Assembly (NCBI RefSeq): GCF_018143015.1
Contig: NC_054741.1
Location: 62,966,697-63,030,696, forward strand
DNA length: 64,000 nt
Direction of reading: 5' to 3'
Source of the DNA: Lytechinus variegatus
Lineage: Eukaryota; Echinodermata; Echinoidea; Temnopleuroida; Toxopneustidae
Shown: positions 42,687-58,068 of the stretch, piece after piece
How the letters are laid out: each line of letters opens with the position of its first letter
Position numbering within the stretch: position 1 is the first letter of the stretch
Program-made: the position numbers and the translations under genes
Notes under the pieces: model-generated
Seen by the model: only the letters and a program-made list of their open reading frames with translations
What the model was told of the DNA's origin: nothing
Databases searched by the model: none

Positions 42687-45600
42687 TTAAGGCATGTCAT
42701 CAAATTCTTCTTCTTTTTTGTGACAAGCACCAAAGCCGTTTGAATTTGGAATTTCTCGTCTTGTCTCAAAGTATTGCTTCTCGTGGTTTTTACCGTAGAT
42801 ATAGATGTAAAGAGGATATATCAAAGCCACGACGTTGGCAAGCATCATCCCAAAGACTACCTGTTTTGAAAATTCAGAGATGATTAAAATGTATATAAAA
42901 ATGAATCATATACGTAAAGGTGCAAAGTTCGCGATTGTAATATTAATTTTCTAAAGAAATTCTGTATATTTTTTTAGGTGTCAATATGGAATCTGCATAG
43001 ACAGTAAGAATGTGTTTCTTTTCTTTTCAGATTTTATGTTTTGTTATAATTTTCTTCAAAGTCAATTAAAAAACAGGTCATCAGTGATATGTGGTACTTT
43101 TATTATGCAAGTCATACGTGAATGTTCCCGCAACATTTGTTGTTCCATGTTAAAAACTGTCACTACACGAATGAAGTGAGCGTCTTGTGTGATAATGAAA
43201 CATTTTAAAGTTTGAAAGAATATAATGGGGGCGAAAAACAATAAAACCCTCCTGAAAAATCACAGAGCTGGTATTAATTATGATATATGCACAGAATTGA
43301 CATACATATCTAAGAAGTAAATTGTAAATAATTGCGGTTGTAAGTAATTGGATTGATCCAATAAATAATTCGTTTAATGAATTATCGATTTATTTGCAAA
43401 ATCTTTTACAATTAAATCATAGTGTTTATATATAGTTTTGTCTAAAGGCATGTAAATGAAAATGAAACTATTAATTTCATCAAATGCGGATTGTGCATGT
43501 TGTTTGAGAAAAGTGGTCTGTGATATAGCTTGAAATAATGTTGGTTGCAATTTGTAAGATCTCTTGATAATTTTACAGAAGAGAGGTTGCAGTTGTTTGT
43601 ATTTTAAATATAGATTCATTTCATTAAACATTGACTTTTGTACAGCATATGAAATGCCCCTTCATCGAACAAAAGGTACTTTCATGGCTGACTTTGTGAT
43701 AATCTGCATCTTTCTTACTTGTCATGCTTGTTGTATATGAATACTTCATTTAGTGTTTATAGCGCATATTAGAATTTAAATTATAAAAAGGAAATAGCAT
43801 GCATAATTCGTATATTATGTTATACTGCACATAGTGTTTTATGCACATAACTATGGCCCCATTGATAATGAAATAAAGACAAAACAGCTTCCTCCTGTCC
43901 CTCGGTTGAATATATTTTAAATGAATGAAATCAATAAAAACACCACTTTATTTCAATGGATGTTCAAAATGTTATTATTGATGGGTTTAACTATTTTCTC
44001 TTGCATAAAATCAAACTTATGTCAGTACGAAGTTCCCTGTCAATGACCAAAGTACCATCTTACCCATCTAGGATCCCCGTTCAGCGATTCCTGGATGACG
44101 ATGAAGAGTGGATACTGGGTGAGAGACATCAAACCAGCGATGAAATTTGCAGTCCCAAACACGGTCGGATAAAATTGCATTGGAAAACTGAAGAAACAAC
44201 GAAAAACAGCAGTTTTAATAACAATCATAGATATTGCAATATTATTTCATAGATTCTGACTAACTAAACAAAAGAAATCCAATTTAATTTATTACCCACT
44301 TTGAAAAAGAAATATAATACAAATATATCGGATTACAAACAAAACAATGAAATAACGGTTTATTCAAAGTGATCCCTGACAGAATTTCATTATGAAAAGA
44401 AATGGAAGGTTGTTCATTTTCAGAGATAGAATTCACTGTCAAATAAAATATACTAGTGTACAAACATATAATTAAACACAGGTTTGGGTGAAAGATGCTT
44501 CAGAAAATCTAATATAATATATATAACTTCTCTAGTATTATCAGGGCATGTGATAAAATGGGATTGTCAGGGTATTAAAATGAGCTCTCTGACACGATCT
44601 AAGTTATTCCAACGACAAAGTTTAATAAAAACAGGTAATACCAGGCGAGTAAAGGAACGAGATGTGTGTTTAATAAAACGCTAGCGGCCAAGAGGCCGAT
44701 CGCTAATCGAACAGGAATATCGATAACAGTCATAATCGATTAACAACATTTACAACAACAAACCATAATTATAAACATAATGGCGTGGCTAATTTCCTTT
44801 TGTTTCTTTTCCCCATGAAATCACAATACTAGTAGAAAGACCATTTAAAACGTACTTTAGAAACAAACATCAAAACTGACACGATATATGTTTTCCTATA
44901 TACAATCCCAAAACACTAATGGTTGAATACAGCAATCTTTCTCAAATCTTTTCTTGGTTAAAGCCACTTAAATAAACAGTCTAACCTTTCTAACATGTCT
45001 AACAGGTCTTGTACATTTAACAACATATATGCATAAAATCAATTCAATAAACTGATTATAAAACAATGTAGAAGTACATGCTTGACACATATAATTCATC
45101 ACCAACATTAAGGATTAAATCCATAAACATGTATTACAATAGACCCACTAAACAAAACCAAATTATATTACCAGTACACTCTCTATGCATCAATTTCATG
45201 TGTATTTCCTCTTCTTTTCCTTTGCAAAAGCTGTTAGATCATAATCACAATTACAATAGTATTAACAGTAACTAACCCTTCTATACTTAATACATTTCAA
45301 TACACTGTTATCGGTTACATATGGTTGTTATGGTATTGGTGCAATAAACATGGTATTCATGCAAAAGCACATATCAACTATCAATATCTTCATCAATCAA
45401 TTACATGTAACTGAACAAACGCATATCTGCTAAATACATCATTAAATATAAACGTGAAATAAGCACAGTAAATTATGTAAAAAGTCTCACCCTTTTTGAC
45501 ATAATCTACAATTAAACAACTTCATGATAAAGTCCTGTTATTCTAATACATACACTTATATCGGCATTGTTTCTTTCTCCTTCAAAAAAAAAACTGTAAA

Positions 45601-48600
45601 TGATAAATCATAAAAACAAATAAAATGAAGGCATTCGTAGACTCTGTCAAAATACCATCAATACGACGGCAAAGAAATGCAAGAGTGATCACAATCCAAG
45701 TCAAGGCTAGCTCCTTAAATAAATGACAACACACTTTACGACTAAAACAAAACTATGTAGTCATGCAATATGATATCGGTCTTGACGCCAAATCCAAGAT
45801 AATGTGTTACTCTTTGATCAGATACACAAGACATAGGCGTTGTAACAAAATATAAAAGTATAACGACATGAAAATGAATATACACATGAAAAGGACATAC
45901 TATATCAGTAAAATTGTTAACCTTAATTATCATCAATAGAAGAAACACATAATATAAAAAAGGCAAAAATTATCAATCAAACAAAGTTAAGATGTCATCT
46001 CAAAATGTAGTACAAACGTGTCTCCAGTAGTGTAAAGCATTAATTCCTGCATCTCCCTGATCTGTGTAACAGGTAAAAAGGAAATAAACAGCTAAAAAAT
46101 TCGTACGATAGTGAAAAGACCCCCCCAAAAGTAATAAAAATGAAATGATAACCAAAACCTGCAAACCAAGTGGGGGCACATTGAACTTCTCAATCACAGC
46201 ACATTCAAACAACCACATCCATTCACACCCAAGAAAAGGGGGCAGGTACACTTTCAAAACCAACCACACACATCAAAAAAACAAACAACTGTGTGTAACT
46301 GTGTATCAAAACAAAGCATTATAATCAACCAACCAAGTATGTATCACCAATACATAAATAACTGTCATAAACCTTCATAAATGGCACTCTATAATACATG
46401 TAATACAAATATCAATAAATCATGAAATCTCCAGCACTGTAATTAAAATCCTGTAATGCGTAATAAAATCAACAAGGGGAAAATAAAACAAGTACAAGAA
46501 AATGCGATTATACACTGTAAACAGAGTCCACTGGATGAGGAGGCATTAGGGGGGTTTAAAAGATAGATGGGACAGCAAGGCATGCATTAGGGGAGAATGA
46601 GGCCACGAATGGGGGCTAGAGTTCAGGGTACACGACTCTGGAGGATGGTTGTCAGCTGTACTGAAAGAGCCAGACCAGATCCAAAAGGCATCGCTCCATG
46701 ATGGGAAGTTGGGTCCAAGGGTAGTTGGATACGTTGCTGCACCACGGGGGCCCAGAGGCTGGAAGGCAAGTACGTCATTAGCAATGGTACTGTAGGAAAC
46801 TATCACATGATAACTAAGATTGGACCTACCGAGAGTAGCATGGGATATGGGGGATACTACATATGGACAGAAAGGGTCATGGGTATCAGGGGCTCTCGTC
46901 AACAAAGGGATAGGGACATCTATAGTAGATGGGAACTTGTTGGATGGGACGCTGCCATCGACAGGCGGCTGGGGGTCCGGTGAAGCATCAACATCTGAGC
47001 AAAATGAAAAATCTAAGTAATTGGTGGGGGCATCTACATCTGCTGGTGGTTGGTAGCGAAGGGCGACTACATCTGTGGGAGGTGGGACATCTAGGTAGTT
47101 GGTATAAGCATCTACATCTGTGAAAGGTGGGACATCTAGGTAGTTGGTATGAGCATCTACATCTGTGAGAGGTGGGACATCTTGGTAGTTGGTATTGGCA
47201 TCTATATCTGATGGTGGTTGGTGAGTGTTTATGTCATTGTCACAAACATTGAAGGTAGCTAGTTGATGATGGGCAGATGTGTGACTATCTGCTATGTTGA
47301 TGGCATGTAAGTGGGACTGAGTTAGAGTGTGTTGGTGCTCCAGCCCAGGGTAGCTATTGGGCTCTGTGTGACTAGTGGTAAGTGAAGTGGTAGCCTGTGA
47401 TTGATTGATGCCTGAGGTTGTGTGTGTCACTGTGTGAGATAGTTGCTGCTGTGTGGTAGCGTTTACACTGCCGACATCGATCTGTAGATTATCACATGAA
47501 ACTAGCAAACGCATTTCGTCACGCGGGACGGGCGAGCACATTTCGGTACACAGAACGTGCGAGTCGTTACGTGGAATGATCGAGCGTGTTACATTTGACT
47601 CATGTGAATCCGTCATGCGCAAATTGTTAACCGAGACTGAGATGTTTACGTTTTCAAGCGCTGTATTGTTGCATGAAGTTGTGCAAGGATCAGATGTGAG
47701 GGGATCACTTTCATCATTGTTACCGAGAGTGGGGCAGATGTTATTTTGCCCCGACAAATCGTCACACGAACCTGTATGAGTAGCCCTAAAACTAATAGAA
47801 CTACTCTCAACACTATTCCCTGAAGTGAGATGATTATCGCCATGGCAACGCGAATTGCCAGCGGAACCAGAATGGATATGAGAAGGTTTAACCTCTTCAG
47901 ACAAATCGTCACACGAACCTGTATGAGTAGCCCTAAAACTAATAGCACTACTCTCAACACTATTCCCTGAAGTGAGATGAGTATTGCCATGGCAACGCGA
48001 ATTGCCAACGGAACCAGAATGGATATGAGAAGGTTTAACCTCTTCAGACTCAGGAGAATCACTAAGGATGGGCTTTCTACCAGATGAGCAGGGCTCATCA
48101 TACAATGCATCCAAACTCTCAACAGGAAGGTTTTGCTCGGTAACCCTAGTAACGGGTACCAGTCTAGATTCATGCACCACAGAACATTGTTCATTTTCAT
48201 CGTATTCAAAGATTGCATTGTTACTGAAAATAATCTGATGCCTTGAAGGTCTTACCATGATATCATTGTCCTCCATGAATGGTGACCCAGCCACAATACC
48301 AACATCTTCACCAACAACTATTCCAAGATATTCCATTTTGACACCACTACTGACCAGACTAAAGTATGAATAACCCACAACATCATACTTGATATTAACT
48401 CTATCCATCTCGTACACATCATACATTGCTTGTTCACCAATAGCAATCTCCAATCCTAATTCATCAATTATGTTCTCACCAATCATGTTAATTTCACTCC
48501 CACTCTTCAATTCTACTCTTATTTTCCTTTCATCATCATGATCAAGATTAGCATAGAAGTAAGGAGGTGATTTCTTACCAGTTTTAACAACACTAGAGGC

Positions 48601-51600
48601 TGACTGCACTCTCGAGTCAGAAACTGATGAACGGGAGCACGGGAGCGGCTCCCCGGCAAAACTAACCGCATCGCCCTCTTGCGAAGCGGTGCCCTTGGCC
48701 ACAGGCATTATTACAACACAGTCATCAATATGCAAAGAGAGACAAAACCCGACCTAAACCAGTCACCGTAAGTACAACGGAACGCCTGGCCCTCAGAATA
48801 TAGGCTTGATTACCTGTAGCCTGGGTGGTAAGAAAACTATATCAGGCCCTCAGTCCGAACCACGAGCTGCCACCACGACAAAGTTTAATAAAAACAGGTA
48901 ATACCAGGCGAGTAAAGGAACGAGATGTGTGTTTAATAAAACGCTAGCGGCCAAGAGGCCGATCGCTAATCGAACAGGAATATCGATAACAGTCATAATC
49001 GATTAACAACATTTACAACAACAAACCATAATTATAAACATAATGGCGCAGCGTGTTTTCTCTATTATTTAACATTCCCTGGGTACTGAAAAGAATGAGC
49101 TGAAGAAAAAAAATCTTCACGAAAAATTAATGACTAGAAAGTGGTATGATTACAGAAGAAAATGACTCCTTTATGGTTGAATTTTGGAAGAACAATCCAA
49201 TAAAATTCACATAATTAAATCTTCATTTAAATTTCAAATAGCCATGAAACTTACGTTATAGGCACGATAGCAGCAGAGGCAGAGTAAAACATAGCCCTGA
49301 CCGCTGTGAGTAAGAGGAAAGTACCAAATTGTACAGGGAGGATTGGCACCATCATTAAACCAGACATGGCTATAGCTGTTACGGAAGATAATGCCACCGG
49401 TAACCAGCTATCTCGCAGATCAGCGTAAGGTCCCTTGGTATCATCTGTATCAAGAAGGCATACAAAATAATGTCTAACGTGATTTAAGAATATTCTTCTG
49501 TTTAGTAGTGAAATGAAAAATGCAAATTGTTTGAAATATAAAACTGTCAAGCGGGCTACTGTGAATTTAATCTTGACATAAGTTTATTTTTTAAATTCAT
49601 AGCATGGATCGACAAAAAGTTATAAAAATGAAGTAATGTAAGACCGTTAAATACTTTGAAGATAACATGTTCATTCAGGAGTATTTCATTGACAGTATCA
49701 ATCATTAAGATATATATATGTTCGTCTTATTATAAAGAAAAGCCATGTTTATTTTAGTCTTTATGTTATATCAACTAGTCTGATATAGCCTTTTCCACCT
49801 TAAAAGACTACTGATTTTGATGTTTTCGAAATATCAGGTCTACACATTCAACGCATATTTTGCTGATTAGGTATATTGCGTGAATTATTTAAAGCTTTAA
49901 AATATCAGGTAAAAACCCAAGTATCAAATGCATAAGTAATTTGACTTGTTAAAATTTGTTTTCATGGTATTGCAGTTTTTGTCGAGATAAATGATCATTA
50001 CAGTGGCAGATATCTTGACTTGTTTTTTATGCTACTTAAGACATTGGTATCAGTTATTTGGAATATAAATTGGTGTCGAATCTAAAGTTTCTTTTTCATG
50101 GTAATCTCTTTGAATATTGGTATTCTAGGATTTAGAATTTCATTTAATACATAGAGGCTTATTGCTCACATGTTGCAAAAGTGTACCAAACCGAGTAATT
50201 CTCTTAAAGTGTTACATCGGCTTCTTTTATAAACCTATTCCAAGGTTCACTATAGCAATGGCAGTACTAAATTTTCAGTGAATGAAGGCGTGTGTGTGGG
50301 GGGGGGGGAGGGGTGGATCGATGTCCATGTTCTAGCCGAAAAGGGGTACCAAAATGGCTGTGACCAGTGAAATACATTAATATGATTAAAGCTCTAGGTA
50401 GCGATGGGGTGGTACTTCTGCAGAATAAACATTCAAATCATTCCATATGATTTTGTATACTTTGGGTATATACTCTGGACTTACAGTTGGCTCTATAGGC
50501 ATATAGTTACAAAAAAAAACCCAAAACTAAAGGTGTAAAATGTTTATTGGAGTAACTACACTTCCAGGATCTCAACTAGTATTGATAATCATTTAGCCTC
50601 CAGTTTAAACGAAATTATTGCAATATATTATTTAAACATTATTTTTACCTTTCTTCGGTGATTTTTCAGAAAGTTCCTTTCGTCTGTCAAAGACGTATCC
50701 CATAATAGGCGATCCAATCAGACTTCCTATGGTGGTTATAGCTAAGATGTTTGTATAAAAACTTACTAGGGTGAAATGAGAAGAGCAAATAATGTTATGA
50801 TTATATATGTACAGTACATATTCTAAATTCTTGATGGTTAAAAAGGGTATCGTCAAGAAATTACCTTCAATCTTATGCATACAGGAAGAATAAACAAACT
50901 CTCTTCTAACGTGATATCTTCTTGACGATCTCGATAACTTTAAAATGGATTTTAATTCTATAGTATAAAGACTTCTGGGAATCATATACATGTATAGCGC
51001 ATTAAATTATATACTTTAGTGAATAGTTTCTGTGCTCTGTGAATCTAAATTGCTTATTGGTTATATTTTTGTTATGCTTAAAATAGGCTATTCTTTTGTG
51101 TGCATTTAAGCATTAATCAATGAACATCTCTCCTTACCAAATTTGACACCAATATGTTCATGTTGACTAAATGCAACGCAAAATGAAAACATAATAGAAA
51201 ACAATGCTTGTGATGTCATCGCTTCCAGTACGCTGTATCACGCATCTGCATTCGTTGGAAAGGGCTACAAGAAAACTATGACAAATACAGGCCTTTTGAG
51301 TGACACAAACCTGTTTCAGTATCGCCATCAGCGAGGAATGTCAACCACGGGTTCATGATCCCGATGACGAAGAAGATCTCGCCCTGGACCACGATCGTCC
51401 AGAACGTCATCAGGAGAAACATGGGCGACTTCAGGATCGACCAGGTAGTTGGGTAATCTTCGAGTCGCTGGTCTTCGGTTAGCTTGTCCCTGGTCGCTCG
51501 CCGAGCCGCCTTGGAAAGGTCGACGCTGGTCCCATTGCTGAGGCCCTGAACAGAGACTTTGTTATCTGTTTCGGGAATTTGGGTGACGTACCCATCTTAA

Positions 51601-54018
51601 GTTTTATATACGAAACAAGGACAAAGGAGTAGATTAATGGTTATTTTGCGAATATTGTGATTCTACATAATCAACACTAGGAAGAGGACAACACTGGCCA
51701 GAGGAGCATATTATTGAAGGTTTGAAATATAACAAAGACAAGCAGCTCTCGACATCAACGGCCACGGGGGGGGGGGGGGGGGCGGCCATTCCTAAAATTT
51801 TTTGAAGTACACTAGTGAAAACGAGAGGGTTTGAGTAGCAAAAACATAACAAAGTAGGAAGAAAAGGGAGAATGGAGAAACAAAATAAGACGGGTGTTGG
51901 GCCATGTTAAACATTATACCTCAATTAGTAATTGTTGAAAGCAGTCCTACCCTCCTATCAAATTTACCTGCATGGCGCCATCGATGCCAGGTGATATGAA
52001 TAATTTAACATTCACTTACAATTTCATCAGACTCATAAACACTCCTATAATTATCAAGATAAATGCTTCCAGTCATCATCGTCTGCTGACCATGTTATTG
52101 TATGACGTCATTAAAACTCTCATAATAAAAACTTTCTTATTGTTATTGGTTTTAGTCAAACCTTCATCATCATTTCTGTTTTAATTAACTTCAAGTTTAA
52201 TTATACAAATACTCGTCTTAGGACAACTTTTTTGAATTCCATACTTTCATTATTATCTCTCCGGTCTAATATTCATGATTGCTACATAATTTCATCCTCT
52301 CGACTCATCACAATTACCGTTTAAATCTTAATGGCTTTCCATAAAACTTTCTTTGAAAAAGTTGACGAATTTGAATACAATAATCGAACTGATCATAATC
52401 ATTGTGAAAGTATGTTCTACCTTCATGTTCATATCCTGCATTATCATGCCATATAACCATGCCATCGTGCTTCTCATAAACATCACTTTCCTTCGCTAAA
52501 CTTGCTTTCCCGCCTTCTTTCCTTTCGTGTTGATCATCTGAAGAATAGATATTGTTCTCATTTAAATTAGAATAACATTCCGGTGACATTTCATCACCGT
52601 CAACAGTCACGTGTTTATTATTGTTTTCCGTCAGCTCTGTTGCCGACTTCAACTCATCTTTGTGATGATCTGAGTTTTGGAAGGGCAACTCTGGGTTTCT
52701 GTCCTTGTTCTTGTAGCAGCATCCGCTTCCAAGTTGGTAGTCCTCAGGGAGTGGCCAAGGGATGTGGTCGCGGGGGAGGAGGAGAGTGTTAATCGTGAAG
52801 AAGAGGGTTGAGATAGCTAAAGCGATGAAGGACGCCCTCAGCGATACACCGGCATCGTATAACACCTACACAAGAAATAAACGAAACCAACAACTGGAAT
52901 TTGTGATATCAAGTATTTGGGGTTTGTTAAACTTGTTTTCTAAATGGGTATAAGGATTGTTTTGATTTTTATCACTTTATTTAAATTTTCAATAAAGGGT
53001 CAGAGGACACATAAGGTAAAACATGTACATAGTAATTTACAAACGTAACATAGGAAGTAAAACTAGTCTAAGTCCTAGTTCATTACGGCAGAGGCAGGAC
53101 ATATTTTAAGCATATATTAACATAATTATTGATATTGTTCTAAAACGTTTCGTTGCATTTACTGTATATTATACAAAATATTGACTAATGTATATTATTG
53201 TAGCTCTTCTGAATACTTCGGGATTTTTTTTCTTGAATTGCAGGAATTTGAAGTTATCTTTTCGGGAAAATTAATTTGATAAGTGAAATTACCATTGCCA
53301 GTTTGTCAACGATGGGTGAAGCACTAATAACAGATCTTTGGGGCAAGGAGTTGGTAATGATAAGACCCACATTTCCTGAAGGAGTCATACACGCAGGTCT
53401 AAATACTACGTGACAGTTCGAGGTAACGAAGGGCGATTAGTGTGCACATTAATTTGCTTGCAGGCGACTATAGTGAATTGCCCAAATCGGAAAGATCAAT
53501 ATCCTAAAAAGACCTTTAAAGAAAATAGTAAAATTGCTATATGATTGTTTCATCAGTGAAAATGATCTAAAAATCACACATTTACCTTGATAAAGAGTAA
53601 CACGCATGCGCTAGAATCACATGACCCGACGATGAGACCAATCACTGTCGACTTGTATTTGGTAAATAGATTCGATATCTAAGAGGAAGAAATACCAGTA
53701 AATACTGATGAAAATGGTTCTATGGCAATTTCATGAAACAAAGATATTTCTCCTTTGAAATCAATATGCAACAAATTTGACGATCTTTAGAAATTATCCG
53801 AGAACAAACTTATGCGAATAAAATGATAAGAATCAAACGACTATATATGATTTAATCAAACTTAGATAAGAATTGTTCTGAAATTTGAAAACTTCACATC
53901 TTGTGTAGATTATTAAGATTCGACCATGTCTTCGTTCATCATCGTCATCATCATCATCATGTCATCATCATCATCATCATCATCATCATCAACATCATCA
54001 TCATCATCATCATCATCA

Positions 54019-54838: not shown

Positions 54839-57800
54839 TACTACTACTACTACTATCTTAATCTAATATTTGGATGGTCACTATTCACGACCGATCTGGA
54901 TTTATTTGAAATCCTTGACATTTTTGTTATGAAAAATGTCGCAAAAAGCCAATAAACATGATAAAGGAAATGAAATGAATTTGGAGTATAGATGATCTGC
55001 TTATGAACCGAAATTTACATTTGTAAAAAAAAGTGAGAAATGACAGGCGGACGAAATAAGTTTAGACTAAATAACAGTCAAATCAAGCATCAGACCAAGT
55101 GACGGTTGAACCAAAATAGAAAATAATTTAGATCAAAATTAATTGATTATAGACCATGGGGTGATGCTGTCAGTCGATTAGACCATTCTGCTTGTACACA
55201 GTAAAACGCTGTTTAAGATTTTATACAACGCTGTTTACTATATGAACCTTACACTAGTTGTTTAACAGTTTAAACAATCATGTCTAATTTATTGAAGATT
55301 AGATATTGAAAATTAAACTTTGTTGTATAAGATTTAAACACTTGTTTAAACTGTTTAAACAATTAATGTAAGGTTCATATAGTAAACAGCGTTGTATAAT
55401 TTTTTTAAACAGCGTTTTTATTGTGTAGACCAAATGGATACAAACCGTAAACCTAATGGTTTTATTTAATTAAATCCGGGTTAGACTACACTTTCATGGA
55501 GAGCCAGTTGTCAACTCATTCACCAAGTAAACATTATTCTTATCCTACTGCAAACAAAAATAATAATTGACTTGTGAAAAAGGTAGAATAGACAAATACA
55601 AAAATATTGTGAATTTTAATTGATTAATAATTGTCATTAATATGGACGATTGTGAAGCCAGGCATTCCATAGAAGTCTGGTTAAATAATTCTAGTTTAGA
55701 CCAGGCTTAAAAGTAGGTTATTAAGCCAGTTCATGGTTAGCTCACGATCAACTTTTCTCAAATGACCTTTGTGATTTTTCATTAGGATGAGCACTATCAT
55801 TTTCAAATGTAGATGTTGCGTAAGCTTTACCGGTAGAGTATTCAAATTCTAAGAACAAAAGGCATTGTATAGACCAGGTGACTAGAATAGTTCATCAGGG
55901 ATAATGTTTGGAAATCTGTATTATTGTCTGCCTTTGGCAAATTTGACTATTGTTTAGGCTACTGTCAAATACTAGTGATTATGAAGGCTATACTTATTAC
56001 TCTTCAGCTTGGATGTGATAAAATGAATATTTTGAAAGGAATACATGAATAATCATCAAATCACAAATGCCTATGTCAGTGAATTTGAAAGCCACCTTCA
56101 TGGTTTATCTAAAATGACCTTTTCTGCTCGTGCGCAGTTTACAACTGTATACAGGCTTATTAAACAGAATACCATCCATTGTAGCATACCTCAAACGTAG
56201 AGATGGTTATAAAGATTCCAGTCACTGCCATGATGATGGTTCCTGGGAACAGAAGATCAGGAACAGACGGGGAGCTGGCCGCTACACACAGGTATGCTAC
56301 GAAGAGCGATACACTACAACAGACGTCAAAATAGTAACAAAAAGGATAATTATTTAAGCAATGTTAAATGATAGTGTAGAATCTAAACAGTATGACTGAA
56401 ATACCCTTGGCAATTCAGTGAACCAATGTTTTTGTTTTAGGAACCCGTGAGGAGATGAAGACCATGACGACATGACCACAAAAAAATGAGATTGGGATAT
56501 TATACAGATATTGACTGATAGGGTGTGGGATATAAACATTCTTTGGACCTCTGGATTTATATTTTCCCGAGGGAAAATATGATCACGAGGGAAAATGCCG
56601 GTCGGTCAATATACAGTGCGTCCCAGAATAAACGAAACCGAGATTTAGCGATCATTTATCATTACTTAATCATAAATAAAATAGACAAATGACCTACCAA
56701 TTTAAAGCTTAGAATCTCCTCTTTCATCTGATATTACTTAGCTTATTTTTTATTCACGCATGAGTGAGCAAAAACAATTTGAAGAAAGGATACCAAAAAC
56801 TCATTTGGCGAGGGGTATCTGGGTTTCAAAAAGAAAACCACATTTATGAAAAGTTCAATATCTGCTCTTTAATTTGGTACCTCAATTACAGAAAATGGTC
56901 AAGAAATAAAAAAGTTCTGGTCATTTGAAATAAGGCTTGTATTTCCATAATTTCATGAGATAAACGTGTTTTCACCGGTTTCCCACAGAAGCTTTCGCAT
57001 GGTGAACAAAAGATTTAATGCATGGCTGATCGTCAACAAAACGGAGTGATGAGTGAGTTTGAAAGCCAGCCTGGAGAACCTCTTCATTTTATGAAATTAT
57101 TGAAAATCAAGCCTCATTTCAAATGACCAGAACTTTGTTATTTCTTGACCATTTTCTGTAATTTAGGTATCAAATTAAAGAGGAGATATTGAACTTTTAA
57201 AAAATGTGGTTTTCTTTTTGAAACCCAGATACCCCCGCCAAATGAGTTTTTGATATCCTTTCTTCAAATTGTATTTGCTCACTCATGCGTGAATGAGAAA
57301 TAATGTAAGTGATATCAGATGAAAGAGGAGATTCTAAGCTTTAAATTGGTAGGTCATTTGTCTATTTTGTTTATGATTAAGTAATGATAAATGATCGCTA
57401 AATCTCGGTTTCGTTTTTTCTGGGACGCACTGTATACATCGAATGTGGACCGGCTGGGAAAATACGTTGATTTCAATCATATCACGTGACGCGCTATGGA
57501 CCAATCGCGCATGGCTATATCTGCCTTGGCTATCTAATATATAGCTCTGTATCATATCATCATCCTGAGAATCCCTATGGGCGAAATATTGATGATGCAT
57601 ATTTATGTGGCATCAAACTTTAATAATGATAAAAAAATATATAGTCATGTAAAAATGATGACTAGGCCCATATACCAACCTAAATATGAGGCGGATGATG
57701 AGTGTCCCTCCTTTCTCGAATAGAATGCCCGAAAACAGCATACTGCAAGGTAGTATACTTGATGATATGGTGTAGATTAGTAACAGCCTAGCATCCTGTG

Positions 57801-58068
57801 CATCGCATTCGACCACGCCTTCATCCACCGAATCATCACGACGCTCAGTCGTCATCGATGTCGAAATAATTGTGATGGGTGACATCGATGGCGACCCCGA
57901 CATGGTGGTCGTTGTATTGTTTTCTGAAGGTGGGCATAGGTTGCTATAATAACCGAGGTCTTTGAGCACGTAGACGAGTGACGGCCATCCGAAGATGATC
58001 GCGGAGTGAAAGAAATTCTCGAGGACGGCGAAAGATAGCACCACCGTCTTCGTCGTAATGAACGCCAT
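42687..58068 (-). CDS. SLC43-family transporter, SLC43A3-like, complete, 9 coding exons
   Basis: Exons from the start: 57680-58068, 56190-56313, 53586-53678, 52421-52865, 51311-51565, 50649-50765, 49255-49444, 44064-44187 and 42687-42860. Borders are AG/GT and phases all agree, giving 636 residues; human SLC43A3 is 491 and SLC43A1/2 about 560. Family blocks: FGWPSLVYVLKDLGY (exon 1), CDAQDARLLLIYT (exon 1), NLFTKYKSTVIGLIVGSCDS (exon 3), AGVSLRASFIALAIS and LLPRDHIPWPLPEDY (exon 4), YTNILAITTIGSLIGSPIMG (exon 6), VPILPVQFGTFLLL (exon 7) and ANFIAGLMSLTQYPLFIVIQ followed by NGDPRW (exon 8). About 12 membrane helices are expected. In vertebrates SLC43A1/2 carry large neutral amino acids and SLC43A3 purine bases; the substrate here is not determined. 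Extra length lies in an N-glycosylation-prone loop after helix 1 (NNTTTT) and in a long hydrophilic Glu/Asp/His-rich central loop in exon 4. Exon 8-7 intron holds an LTR element. Confidence 0.95.
44612..44785 (-). repeat. LTR (3' copy in element orientation), 174 bp
   Basis: Base-for-base identical by eye to 48875-49048. It carries AATAAA on the plus strand at both TTTAATAAAA sites and GCGGCCAAGAGGCCGATCGC, a short inverted repeat (GGCC..GGCC). The termini are not the usual TG/CA. Confidence 0.93.
44793..44814 (-). other. Polypurine tract of the LTR element
   Basis: On the minus strand the bases read GGGGAAAAGAAACAAAAGG followed by AAA, eight bases or so before the left LTR copy, where plus-strand DNA priming is expected. 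Confidence 0.7.
46546..48735 (-). CDS. 729-residue ORF: retropepsin-like domain plus repeat-rich tail
   Basis: The start ATG at 48735 lies about 140 bp after the right LTR. Residues about 70-180 resemble a gypsy-type aspartyl protease: VELKSGSEINMIGENIIDEL at 74-93 matches the active-site strand, and AGSPFMEDNDIMVRPSRHQI (149-168) matches the flap-to-C-terminal block. The catalytic Asp position is Lys (K77), so the fold may be kept without proteolysis, or the domain is decaying. The remaining 550 residues are Ser/Thr/His-rich and disordered, with two tandem 49-residue copies (encoded at 47754-48047) and later repeats of TNYLDVPPxTDVDAxTNYLD type. No membrane segment or polymerase motif is seen. 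The frame is open throughout, which argues for selection or recent origin. Host-gene origin of the tail is possible. Confidence 0.75.
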   Translation of the reverse strand: MHIDDCVVIMPVAKGTASQEGDAVSFAGEPLPCSRSSVSDSRVQSASSVVKTGKKSPPYFYANLDHDDERKIRVELKSGSEINMIGENIIDELGLEIAIGEQAMYDVYEMDRVNIKYDVVGYSYFSLVSSGVKMEYLGIVVGEDVGIVAGSPFMEDNDIMVRPSRHQIIFSNNAIFEYDENEQCSVVHESRLVPVTRVTEQNLPVESLDALYDEPCSSGRKPILSDSPESEEVKPSHIHSGSVGNSRCHGNTHLTSGNSVESSAISFRATHTGSCDDLSEEVKPSHIHSGSAGNSRCHGDNHLTSGNSVESSSISFRATHTGSCDDLSGQNNICPTLGNNDESDPLTSDPCTTSCNNTALENVNISVSVNNLRMTDSHESNVTRSIIPRNDSHVLCTEMCSPVPRDEMRLLVSCDNLQIDVGSVNATTQQQLSHTVTHTTSGINQSQATTSLTTSHTEPNSYPGLEHQHTLTQSHLHAINIADSHTSAHHQLATFNVCDNDINTHQPPSDIDANTNYQDVPPLTDVDAHTNYLDVPPFTDVDAYTNYLDVPPPTDVVALRYQPPADVDAPTNYLDFSFCSDVDASPDPQPPVDGSVPSNKFPSTIDVPIPLLTRAPDTHDPFCPYVVSPISHATLGRSNLSYHVIVSYSTIANDVLAFQPLGPRGAATYPTTLGPNFPSWSDAFWIWSGSFSTADNHPPESCTLNSSPHSWPHSPLMHALLSHLSFKPP
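47754..48047 (-). repeat. Two in-frame 147-bp tandem units in the element ORF
   Basis: 47754-47900 and 47901-48047 both read ACAAATCGTCACACGAACCT.. on the plus strand and differ at only a few positions (for example GATTATCGCC versus GAGTATTGCC). A 147-bp period keeps the frame and encodes 49 residues each. Confidence 0.9.
48860..48875 (-). other. Probable primer-binding site of the LTR element
   Basis: Immediately inside the right LTR the minus strand reads TGGTGGCAGCTCGTGG. It begins with the TGG that pairs with a tRNA CCA end. The tRNA species was not identified. Confidence 0.55.
48875..49048 (-). repeat. LTR (5' copy in element orientation), 174 bp
   Basis: Identical to 44612-44785. The outer flank (CAGCGTGTTTTC) and the flank of the other LTR (TTATTCCA) do not show a clear target duplication. 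Confidence 0.93.
53940..54220. repeat. (ATC)n microsatellite
   Basis: A long, slightly interrupted ATC/CAT tract in the intron between SLC43-like exons 3 and 2. Its poly-Ser/His/Ile readings are not genes. Confidence 0.97.
54247..54855. repeat. (TAC)n microsatellite interrupted by a MITE
   Basis: TAC/ACT repeats run from 54247 to 54298 and resume at 54583-54855. The element at 54300-54580 sits exactly between them. The second tract is over 270 bp with rare GCT and TTC variants and gives a poly-Leu frame. Confidence 0.96.
54300..54580 (+). mobile_element. MITE family 7, copy 1, inside (TAC)n
   Basis: Ends ACTGTTAGAAAA and TTTTTTAACAGTGTG are inverted. Internal blocks AAAATAAAAGAAGTTTCTGC, GGTATTTGGTGTACGGAATC and GATTCTGTTATTACTTTCTG match, in reverse orientation, the element at 62126-62398. 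Confidence 0.85.
55050..55500. repeat. TAGACCA-type repeat carrying a palindromic insertion
   Basis: TTTAGACTAAATAACAGTC, AGACCAAGTGACGG and TTATAGACCATGGGG on the left and TGTAGACCAAATGGATAC on the right recall the degenerate repeat at 15125-15345. The palindrome at 55197-55428 lies within it. Confidence 0.45.
55197..55428. mobile_element. Fold-back MITE family 5, intact copy
   Basis: ACACAGTAAAACGCTGTTTA and ATACAACGCTGTTTACTATA with TGAACCTTACA are mirrored in the right arm (TGTAAGGTTCATATAGTAAA, CAGCGTTGTATAA, AAACAGCGTTTTTATTGTGT). The arms are about 95 bp with a short AT-rich centre. Split relatives of both arms are at 28024 and 30205. Confidence 0.88.
55731..56162. mobile_element. MITE family 2, copy 2
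   Basis: TTAAGCCAGTTCATGGTTAG at the left and TACAACTGTATACAGGCTTAT at the right are imperfect inverted ends. AGACCAGGTGACTAGAATAG and CTCAAATGACCTT are shared with the copy at 7797-8266. It ends about 28 bp before SLC43-like exon 2. Confidence 0.65.
56611..57434. mobile_element. 824-bp near-palindrome with mariner-type ATACAGTGCGTCCC ends
   Basis: ATACAGTGCGTCCCAGAATA at the left is inverted at the right end (CTGGGACGCACTGTAT). The arms are over 320 bp and align almost throughout (for example GATCATTTATCATTACTTAA, CTTAGAATCTCCTCTTTCAT, CAAATGAGTTTTTG). The centre of about 120 bp is unique. TA at the borders and the CAGTGCGTCCC ends resemble Tc1/mariner derivatives. No transposase is present. 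Confidence 0.93.

What the first reader, a model, noticed from the sequence alone, without database searches (positions are those of the whole stretch)
46546..48735. LTR element whose only ORF is a retropepsin-like domain with Lys in place of the catalytic Asp and a long repeat-rich tail
Seen: one intact 729-codon frame between identical LTRs, with a protease-like core (LKSGSE at 76-81, AGSPFMEDNDI at 149-159) and 550 residues of Ser/Thr/His-rich repeats, but no reverse transcriptase, RNase H or integrase. Known: active retropepsins need DTG or DSG. Inference: a non-autonomous element that keeps a non-catalytic protease fold, perhaps to join the particles of an autonomous partner, or that carries a captured host sequence. 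An open frame of this length without polymerase is unusual.
Basis: partly seen in the sequence, partly recalled or inferred. Interest (0 to 1): 0.75.

Follow-up and report, generated by a model that had tools for sequence, protein, structure and literature searches.

The report
Jumping gene keeping a dead protease
A sea-urchin jumping gene that cannot copy itself still carries one long intact gene for a retrovirus-like protease whose cutting residue is gone, and related elements suggest that evolution has kept the rest of that protein, perhaps to bind a helper element's protease.

Summary
On the minus strand, 44613-49048 is a 4436-bp LTR element with identical 173-bp LTRs and one ORF (729 codons from TTG, 720 from ATG). 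It is a non-autonomous Troyka element of a sea urchin, almost certainly Lytechinus variegatus (CGCCA...CG termini; 3-bp target duplications in relatives). Non-autonomous Troykas are published as abundant in sea urchins; the texts I read describe no conserved ORF in them.

The domain is homologous to Asp-bearing Troyka proteases (profile E=1.5e-24). In 79 aligned rows the catalytic Asp is kept in 10 of 10 rows of the autonomous family and 4 of 69 others (K, R, H, F, V or I instead); the next residue is Ser in 78, the one after Gly in 73. The frame looks selected: domain omega 0.49 in the best-sampled family (p=0.002), about 0.2 across lineages (saturated); 15 of 16 ORF indels are multiples of three against 13 of 62 noncoding. 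Two smaller family tests were not significant.

Not shown: structure (two AlphaFold failures), a helper with the same LTR, expression, mechanism. Best guess: a pseudo-protease that still dimerises, linking the element to a helper's particle.

The parts
44613..49048 (-). whole element, 4436 bp, non-autonomous Troyka LTR retrotransposon
   Evidence: CGCCA...CG termini; flanking triplets CAA (44610-44612) and CAG (49049-49051), a 2-of-3 match, so no exact target duplication for this copy
48876..49048 (-). 5' LTR (173 bp)
   Evidence: 0 mismatches to the 3' LTR
48866..48875 (-). primer binding site TGGTGGCAGC, directly after the LTR
   Evidence: match to a tRNA-Leu 3' end is recalled, not tested
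46546..48735 (-). single ORF, 729 codons from TTG (ATG at 48706-48708)
   Evidence: P0001 (LOC121408592, Lytechinus variegatus) is the same protein from that ATG without one 49-aa repeat unit
48199..48567 (-). pseudo-retropepsin domain (residues 57-179)
   Evidence: hhalign against four Asp-bearing Troyka proteases, probability 99.6, E=1.5e-24; tblastn E=6.7e-15; fold not confirmed
48505..48507 (-). codon 77 (Lys) at the catalytic Asp position; Ser78 and Gly79 of the D-S-G loop kept
46549..48198 (-). long low-complexity tail, acidic, Ser/Thr/Pro-rich (D+E 11.6%, K+R 3.8%)
47753..48046 (-). in-frame tandem duplication, two 147-bp units, 97% alike; P0001, L009 and L010 have one unit
44786..46545 (-). 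3' noncoding region ending in a purine-rich stretch (possible PPT) before the 3' LTR
44613..44785 (-). 3' LTR (173 bp)

Best explanation
A recently inserted non-autonomous Troyka LTR retrotransposon. It moves (inferred) with the reverse transcriptase and integrase of an autonomous Troyka. Its one protein derives from the Gag-Pol protease region: a retropepsin-homologous domain that no longer has the catalytic Asp, plus a long acidic, disordered-looking tail. Shown: homology; loss of the Asp in 65 of 69 rows outside the autonomous family; retention of the Ser-Gly next to it; purifying selection on the domain in some comparisons; frame preservation by indels. Inferred: the protein is kept for a non-catalytic task that favours the element encoding it, most likely dimerising through the protease fold with the protease part of helper Gag-Pol, so that its own RNA or RNP joins the particle or the timing of helper proteolysis is changed. 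Rough split: identity as non-autonomous Troyka 0.97; selected non-catalytic retropepsin 0.9; dimerisation with helper Gag-Pol 0.35.
For: Termini and TSDs: 17 of 19 elements were parsed (14 non-autonomous including the window, 3 copies of one autonomous family); 16 end in CG and one (L063) in TG, all start CGCCA (partly by construction of the script), and 11 of 17 have an exact 3-bp duplication. These are the published Troyka marks (PMC12440569). An autonomous Troyka is present: five intact 1653-codon frames at 99-100% identity (28 of 1504 candidates scored) with RT and RNase H above Pfam cut-offs and integrase and protease matches below them. Homology. Catalytic Asp: 79 rows with a letter; D in 10 of 10 autonomous-family rows and 4 of 69 others; Ser 78 of 79, Gly 73 of 79. 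In 17 family representatives, chosen without the Asp-bearing L064 family, the Asp column ranks 95th of 118 for conservation, Ser is 16 of 17 and Gly 15 of 17. Selection on the domain: omega 0.486 (K family, 10 copies, p=0.002), 0.199 (30 core copies), 0.338 (D64+V63 set, 11 rows, p=1e-6). Indels: ORF 15 of 16 multiples of 3; noncoding 13 of 62; Fisher p=1.1e-7. Same ORF type in database proteins P0002-P0009 from unnamed ENA records.
Against: Domain omega is not significantly below 1 in the H family (0.55, p=0.09), the V family (1.03, p=0.94) or the autonomous family (0.48, p=0.16). Cross-lineage omega rests on saturated synonymous sites. Pairwise tail omega is 0.63-1.04, near neutral. Both AlphaFold runs failed (pLDDT 36 and 40), so the fold is argued from sequence profiles only. 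No helper with the same LTR was found, the autonomous PBS differs (TGCTGGCCGC), and 10 of 11 other PBS-junction sites showed no Troyka RT in the 1.2-kb stretch examined. Most copies in the indel test were chosen for open frames. Absence of RT was checked directly in 15 elements, and for the other rows is inferred from family or frame length. No expression data were available. The other two full copies of the window family each carry a stop.
Confidence: 0.55

Rival explanations
1. Trans-dominant brake: the pseudo-protease pairs with helper protease monomers and blocks or delays proteolysis. In the window's clade the catalytic Asp is mostly replaced by a basic residue, as in engineered HIV-1 protease subunits carrying Lys at that place.
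For: K, R or H in 35 of the 38 clade-A rows with a letter, F in 3; Ser of the active-site loop kept. PMC1865004 (passages only) uses D25K/G49W/I50W as protease-inactivating changes and cites McPhee 1996 on protease heterodimers as inhibitors; I did not see that paper (not held). That Lys favours heterodimers is recalled.
Against: The second clade uses V or I, so a basic residue is not a general requirement; blocking the helper's protease would also harm the element's own movement unless it only changes timing; no binding data.
Confidence: 0.2
2. Remnant: the frame is left over from an ancestral Gag-Pol and survives because copies are young.
For: Identical LTRs show recent insertion; tail omega near 1; two of three window-family copies have a stop; V-family omega 1.03 and H-family p=0.09; older copies are broken (L011, L012).
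Against: The best copies of lineages that differ by dS above 1 in the domain still have open frames of 513 (L018), 729 (window) and 852 (L013) codons; K-family omega 0.49, p=0.002; 15 of 16 ORF indels in frame, including 6 of 6 among window, L009 and L010 (two of the six are probably one event); L009 and L010 were not chosen for open frames.
Confidence: 0.1
3. The tail is the working part (RNA, particle or host binding) and the protease-derived domain is only a stable cap or oligomeriser.
For: The tail is 240-796 residues in the 10 ORFs, acidic in most, and ORF indels keep frame.
Against: The tail evolves near neutrally while the domain is more constrained; no tail motif stood up (PP[DE] enriched only in the repeat-bearing L017/L021 tails and weakly in L013).
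Confidence: 0.2
4. Captured or domesticated host gene carried by an LTR element.
For: NCBI models it as an ordinary locus (LOC121408592); no Pfam match.
Against: Direct similarity to the autonomous Troyka protease; the zinc finger of Troyka Gag is still present upstream of the domain in relatives L063 and L064 (read by eye); eight families with LTR pairs share the architecture.
Confidence: 0.03

Closest known systems
Troyka LTR retrotransposons (Kojima 2025, PMC12440569: parts 1-3 of 5 of the text plus find passages read; also treated as Kuafuorterviruses, PMC11673190, passages read)
   Same: CGCCA...CG termini, 3-bp target duplications, LTR 100-400 bp, protease homology; zinc finger CX2CX8HX4C in the autonomous L027 and in relatives L063, L064 (read by eye)
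   Different: Autonomous Troykas have a full Gag-Pol; this element has only a protease-derived domain plus tail, without the zinc finger. [quoted passage not shown] the parts I read describe no conserved pseudo-protease
RLG_Quinta, non-autonomous partner of RLG_Cereba in wheat (PMC11302176, abstract read)
   Same: non-autonomous LTR element that keeps one structural protein gene and is thought to be moved by an autonomous partner
   Different: keeps GAG, which it is proposed to contribute; here Gag is absent and the kept domain is a protease without its catalytic residue
TR-GAG elements of plants (search listing only; content recalled)
   Same: non-autonomous LTR elements with a single kept ORF
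   Different: the ORF is Gag
Engineered HIV-1 protease subunits with D25K (PMC1865004, passages; McPhee 1996 cited there, not seen)
   Same: basic residue in place of the catalytic Asp in a dimeric retropepsin
   Different: made in the laboratory, with two further changes; here natural, in several lineages, without evidence of binding

Membership tests
Troyka superfamily | 5'-CG...CG-3' LTR termini (CGCCA start) | tested here: met
   Window LTR CGCCATTA...CTTTGTCG; the other 16 parsed elements start CGCCA, and one of them ends in TG
Troyka superfamily | 3-bp target site duplication | tested here: inconclusive
   Window flanks CTG/TTG in element sense, 2 of 3; exact in 11 of 17 parsed elements, including sister copies L009 and L010
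Troyka superfamily | Gag zinc finger CX2CX8-10HX4C | tested here: not met
   Absent from the window ORF; present in L027, L063, L064 (sequences, read by eye). A non-autonomous derivative need not have it
Troyka superfamily | RT, RNase H and IN of Troyka type | tested here: not met
   None in the element; so a member only as a non-autonomous derivative, resting on termini, PBS position and protease homology
Retropepsin family (as homologue) | significant profile similarity to a retropepsin | tested here: met
   (E=1.5e-24) to four Asp-bearing Troyka proteases; the autonomous one matches PF13975 (E=7e-4) and PF13650 (E=1.4e-3), both below the curated cut-off; the Asp-bearing profile matches in the PDB 7efy (E=0.018; that it is DDI-type is recalled) and DDI2 4rgh (E=0.35), with an unrelated chain between them. 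The window domain itself has no Pfam or credible PDB hit; one of nine clade-A members matches PF09668 Asp_protease at E=0.069
Retropepsin family (as enzyme) | catalytic D-T/S-G | tested here: not met
   K-S-G
Retropepsin family (as enzyme) | retropepsin fold and dimer | tested here: inconclusive
   AlphaFold pLDDT 36 and 40 with 9-row alignments; dimerisation not testable here
TR-GAG / Quinta-type elements | single ORF encoding Gag | tested here: not met
   tblastn with the autonomous polyprotein covers only its residues 352-501, the protease

The most novel reading that the evidence does not exclude
Sea-urchin Troyka derivatives have evolved a natural class of pseudo-retropepsins that act as dimerisation partners of the helper's protease. 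In one clade a basic residue sits where the catalytic Asp was, a natural counterpart of engineered dominant-negative HIV protease subunits; the protein either carries the element into the helper's particle or sets the timing of the helper's proteolysis, and the ORF is held by selection because it acts in preference on the RNA that encodes it.
Probability: 0.25. Interest if true: 0.85.

Novelty: new variant of a known kind. Interest (0 to 1): 0.6.

Why it matters
Non-autonomous LTR elements usually keep no protein, or keep Gag (recalled; Quinta). Here several families of them keep a protease domain minus its catalytic residue. If confirmed, this is a natural set of pseudo-retropepsins, useful for learning what the protease fold does apart from cutting and how a parasite of a retroelement gains entry to its helper's particle. 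It also explains an annotated 'uncharacterized' sea-urchin locus, LOC121408592.

Tried and rejected
Pfam: no match for the window ORF or domain, nor for L013, L017, L018, P0006 or L063-L065; L024 had two weak unrelated matches (E=0.15, 0.41); of nine clade-A domains one matched Asp_protease PF09668 at E=0.069 and one an unrelated family at 0.13. PDB by sequence with the domain and the clade-A profile: one unrelated weak hit each. Structure prediction failed twice; no fold search was run on such models. The profile search with A4 returned only P0001 and P0009. Viral contigs: 13 pattern matches, no relative. LTR search for a helper with the same LTR: none. PBS-junction pattern: 39 matches against 5 for the reversed control; of 15 sites not near an element I knew, 11 were read in a 1.2-kb stretch about 2.1-3.3 kb downstream: 1 matched the K family and 10 matched nothing. 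A C-terminal PPD motif looked shared by eye but shuffles support it only in L017/L021 and weakly in L013: dropped. Domesticated host gene: rejected. A 'basic residue is universal' rule: rejected, since clade B has V or I and one clade-A family F. Earlier omega tests (reprinted where my script failed to read kappa) fixed kappa at 2 under omega=1; one search replaces them with the best of four kappa values, after which the H family (p 0.007 to 0.09) and the autonomous family (0.004 to 0.16) were no longer significant. Rows left out of the tally: L011 and L012 (decayed; L012 reads E at the site), L045 (left out by my script; reads V), P0001 (same as the window) and P0004 (lacks the site); L016, L041 and L044 had a gap there; L063, L064 and L065 are second fetches of the loci L047, L051 and L043, so three loci count twice. 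From the K-family omega test I dropped L044 and L055; L019 and L022 were not in the indel test.

Papers: eight searches listed no paper whose title or abstract start describes such an element; where more papers matched than were listed I saw only the listed ones. Only the held open-licence library was searched; Repbase and the Troyka paper's supplements were not readable here.
Full report
What is there. The ORF lies on the minus strand at 46546-48735 inside a 4436-bp element, 44613-49048, whose two 173-bp LTRs are identical. The order in the element's own sense is 5' LTR, PBS (TGGTGGCAGC, directly after the LTR), leader, ORF, about 1.8 kb of noncoding DNA, purine-rich stretch, 3' LTR. The ORF has 729 codons from a TTG and 720 from an ATG; a stop-free run of that length has probability about 1e-16 from base composition. 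The best database match is LOC121408592 of Lytechinus variegatus (P0001), the same protein from the ATG less one 49-residue repeat unit. The window lies in an 84.6-Mb contig of an 870-Mb genome, nearly the length of the contig holding P0001; I take the species to be L. variegatus and P0001 to be another assembly or allele of this locus (inference).

What family. The LTRs start CGCCA and end in CG. I parsed the ends of 17 of 19 elements by script (14 non-autonomous, 3 copies of one autonomous family): 16 end in CG, L063 in TG, and 11 have an exact 3-bp target duplication; the window matches at only 2 of 3 positions, and L018, L021, L022, L023 and L027 also lack an exact one (the script looked for a CG-start near the repeat border, so the start motif is partly by construction). 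L013 and L065 were not parsed; L065 read by eye has AAG on both sides. A literature search for 3-bp duplications led to Troyka, and Kojima 2025 (PMC12440569; [quoted passage not shown] The same genome has an autonomous Troyka: five intact 1653-codon frames at 99-100% identity (in which 28 of 1504 candidates were scored). Its RT and RNase H pass Pfam cut-offs; integrase zinc domain, rve and aspartyl protease matches lie below theirs. Its zinc finger fits the published CX2CX8-10HX4C pattern (sequence, read by eye).

Is the domain a protease relative. Pfam and PDB searches with the window domain find nothing credible. But tblastn of the autonomous polyprotein against the window region finds the domain and nothing else (E=6.7e-15), and profile-profile comparison of nine clade-A domains with four Asp-bearing ones (two autonomous, two of the L064 family) gives probability 99.6 and E=1.5e-24, placing Lys77 on the catalytic Asp. 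The Asp-bearing profile in turn weakly matches 7efy (E=0.018; DDI-type by recall) and DDI2 (E=0.35) in the PDB, with an unrelated chain ranked between them. AlphaFold with nine rows failed twice (pLDDT 36, 40). So homology is strong and the fold is inferred.

A radiation, not a single oddity. The own-genome protein search gave 66 match rows and a search with a zinc-finger-bearing relative 70, both including fragments and autonomous copies and both capped. LTR pairs were seen for eight families: window, L013, L017, L018, L024, L063, L064, L065; absence of RT was checked directly in 15 elements. For the other rows, most known only from short fetched stretches, non-autonomy is inferred from family or frame length. 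Two clades emerge in a tree rooted on the autonomous family (LG+G4, ultrafast bootstrap): clade A (100, 35 tips), holding the window, with K, R, H or, in one family, F at the catalytic site; and clade B (99, 23 tips), with V or I, in which L063 and L064 keep the Troyka zinc finger. The L064 family keeps D-S-G although it groups with a V family (support 88), so Asp was lost several times, or lost and regained. Counts over the 79 rows with a letter (72 locus rows, 7 database proteins): V 23, K 15, D 14, R 10, H 10, I 4, F 3; the next residue is Ser in 78, the one after Gly in 73 (three loci counted twice and some rows dropped, see Tried and rejected). D occurs in 10 of 10 rows of the autonomous family, several of them broken copies, and in 4 of the 69 others, all of the L064 family. 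In 17 representatives, chosen without that family, the Asp column ranks 95th of 118 for conservation while Ser is 16 of 17 and Gly 15 of 17; the flap region is the least like the autonomous protease in clade A (0.09 identity) and clade B (0.14). In HIV protease the residue after the Asp forms the dimer's 'fireman's grip' (recalled); its retention without the Asp is why I favour a dimerising, non-cutting role.

Is it kept by selection. Codon models for the domain: K family, 10 copies, omega 0.486, p=0.002; H family, 10 copies, 0.554, p=0.09; V family, 7 rows, 1.03, p=0.94; 30 core copies, 0.199; six lineages, 0.091; D64+V63, 11 rows, 0.338, p=1e-6; autonomous family, 10 rows, 0.48, p=0.16. The cross-lineage values are affected by saturation. 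The tail is near neutral by pairwise omega (0.63 to 1.04 where it could be computed). Yet indels keep the frame: in four families 15 of 16 ORF indels are multiples of 3 against 13 of 62 in noncoding DNA, p=1.1e-7. Most aligned copies were chosen for open frames, which biases this; L009 and L010 were not, carry a stop each, and with the window give 6 of 6 in-frame ORF indels, of which the 147- and 150-base ones are probably one event. Window, L009 and L010 differ by 1.2-2.3% from each other while each LTR pair has 0-1 mismatches (L009's 3' LTR also lacks 17 bp), so they are recent insertions from already diverged sources.

How it probably works. Selection on a protein in an element that must use another's reverse transcriptase suggests that the protein helps the RNA that encodes it. 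Retroviral proteases work as dimers formed between Gag-Pol chains (recalled). A pseudo-protease could pair with helper Gag-Pol and so be carried, with its RNA, into the particle, or could delay proteolysis. The basic residue in clade A recalls engineered D25K subunits of HIV protease (PMC1865004 passages). None of this was tested; clade B's V and I show that a basic residue is not required.

Limits. No helper with the same LTR was found, the Gag-based search for other autonomous Troykas did not complete, other species' DNA could not be read, and supplements and Repbase were out of reach, so a prior description of this ORF there cannot be excluded.

Noticed in passing
window:39026-40429 (+): Uninterrupted 467-aa ORF for a rhodopsin-family GPCR (PF00001, E=5.6e-39).
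   Followed up: partly
window:49250-58070 (-): Pieces that by eye look like exons of a membrane transporter beside the element (50632-50991, 52314-52865, 57613-58068); the latter two had no Pfam hit. The element may sit in or near that gene, in its orientation.
   Followed up: partly
L064 (G000:C3:66162800-66169300), also L048, L053: A non-autonomous Troyka family that keeps D-S-G and a zinc finger but no RT (checked in L064), grouping with a family that has V at that site: a possible intermediate or regained motif.
   Followed up: partly
L018, L021, L022, L023, L027 and window: Target triplets that differ by one base (CTG/CAG three times, and single other cases) in elements with nearly identical LTRs; cause unknown.
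   Followed up: no
L065 (G000:C2:76982600-76988600): Non-autonomous Troyka next to, and probably inserted in, another LTR retrotransposon's open frame (428 aa, RNase H-integrase by eye); the flanking triplet AAG is duplicated.
   Followed up: partly
window:47753-48046: The 147-bp in-frame duplication is absent from P0001, which comes from a contig of nearly the same length: length polymorphism or assembly difference.
   Followed up: partly
G000: 15 of 39 matches: PBS-junction matches not near any element I knew; 11 were sampled, 1 matched the K family and 10 matched nothing.
   Followed up: partly
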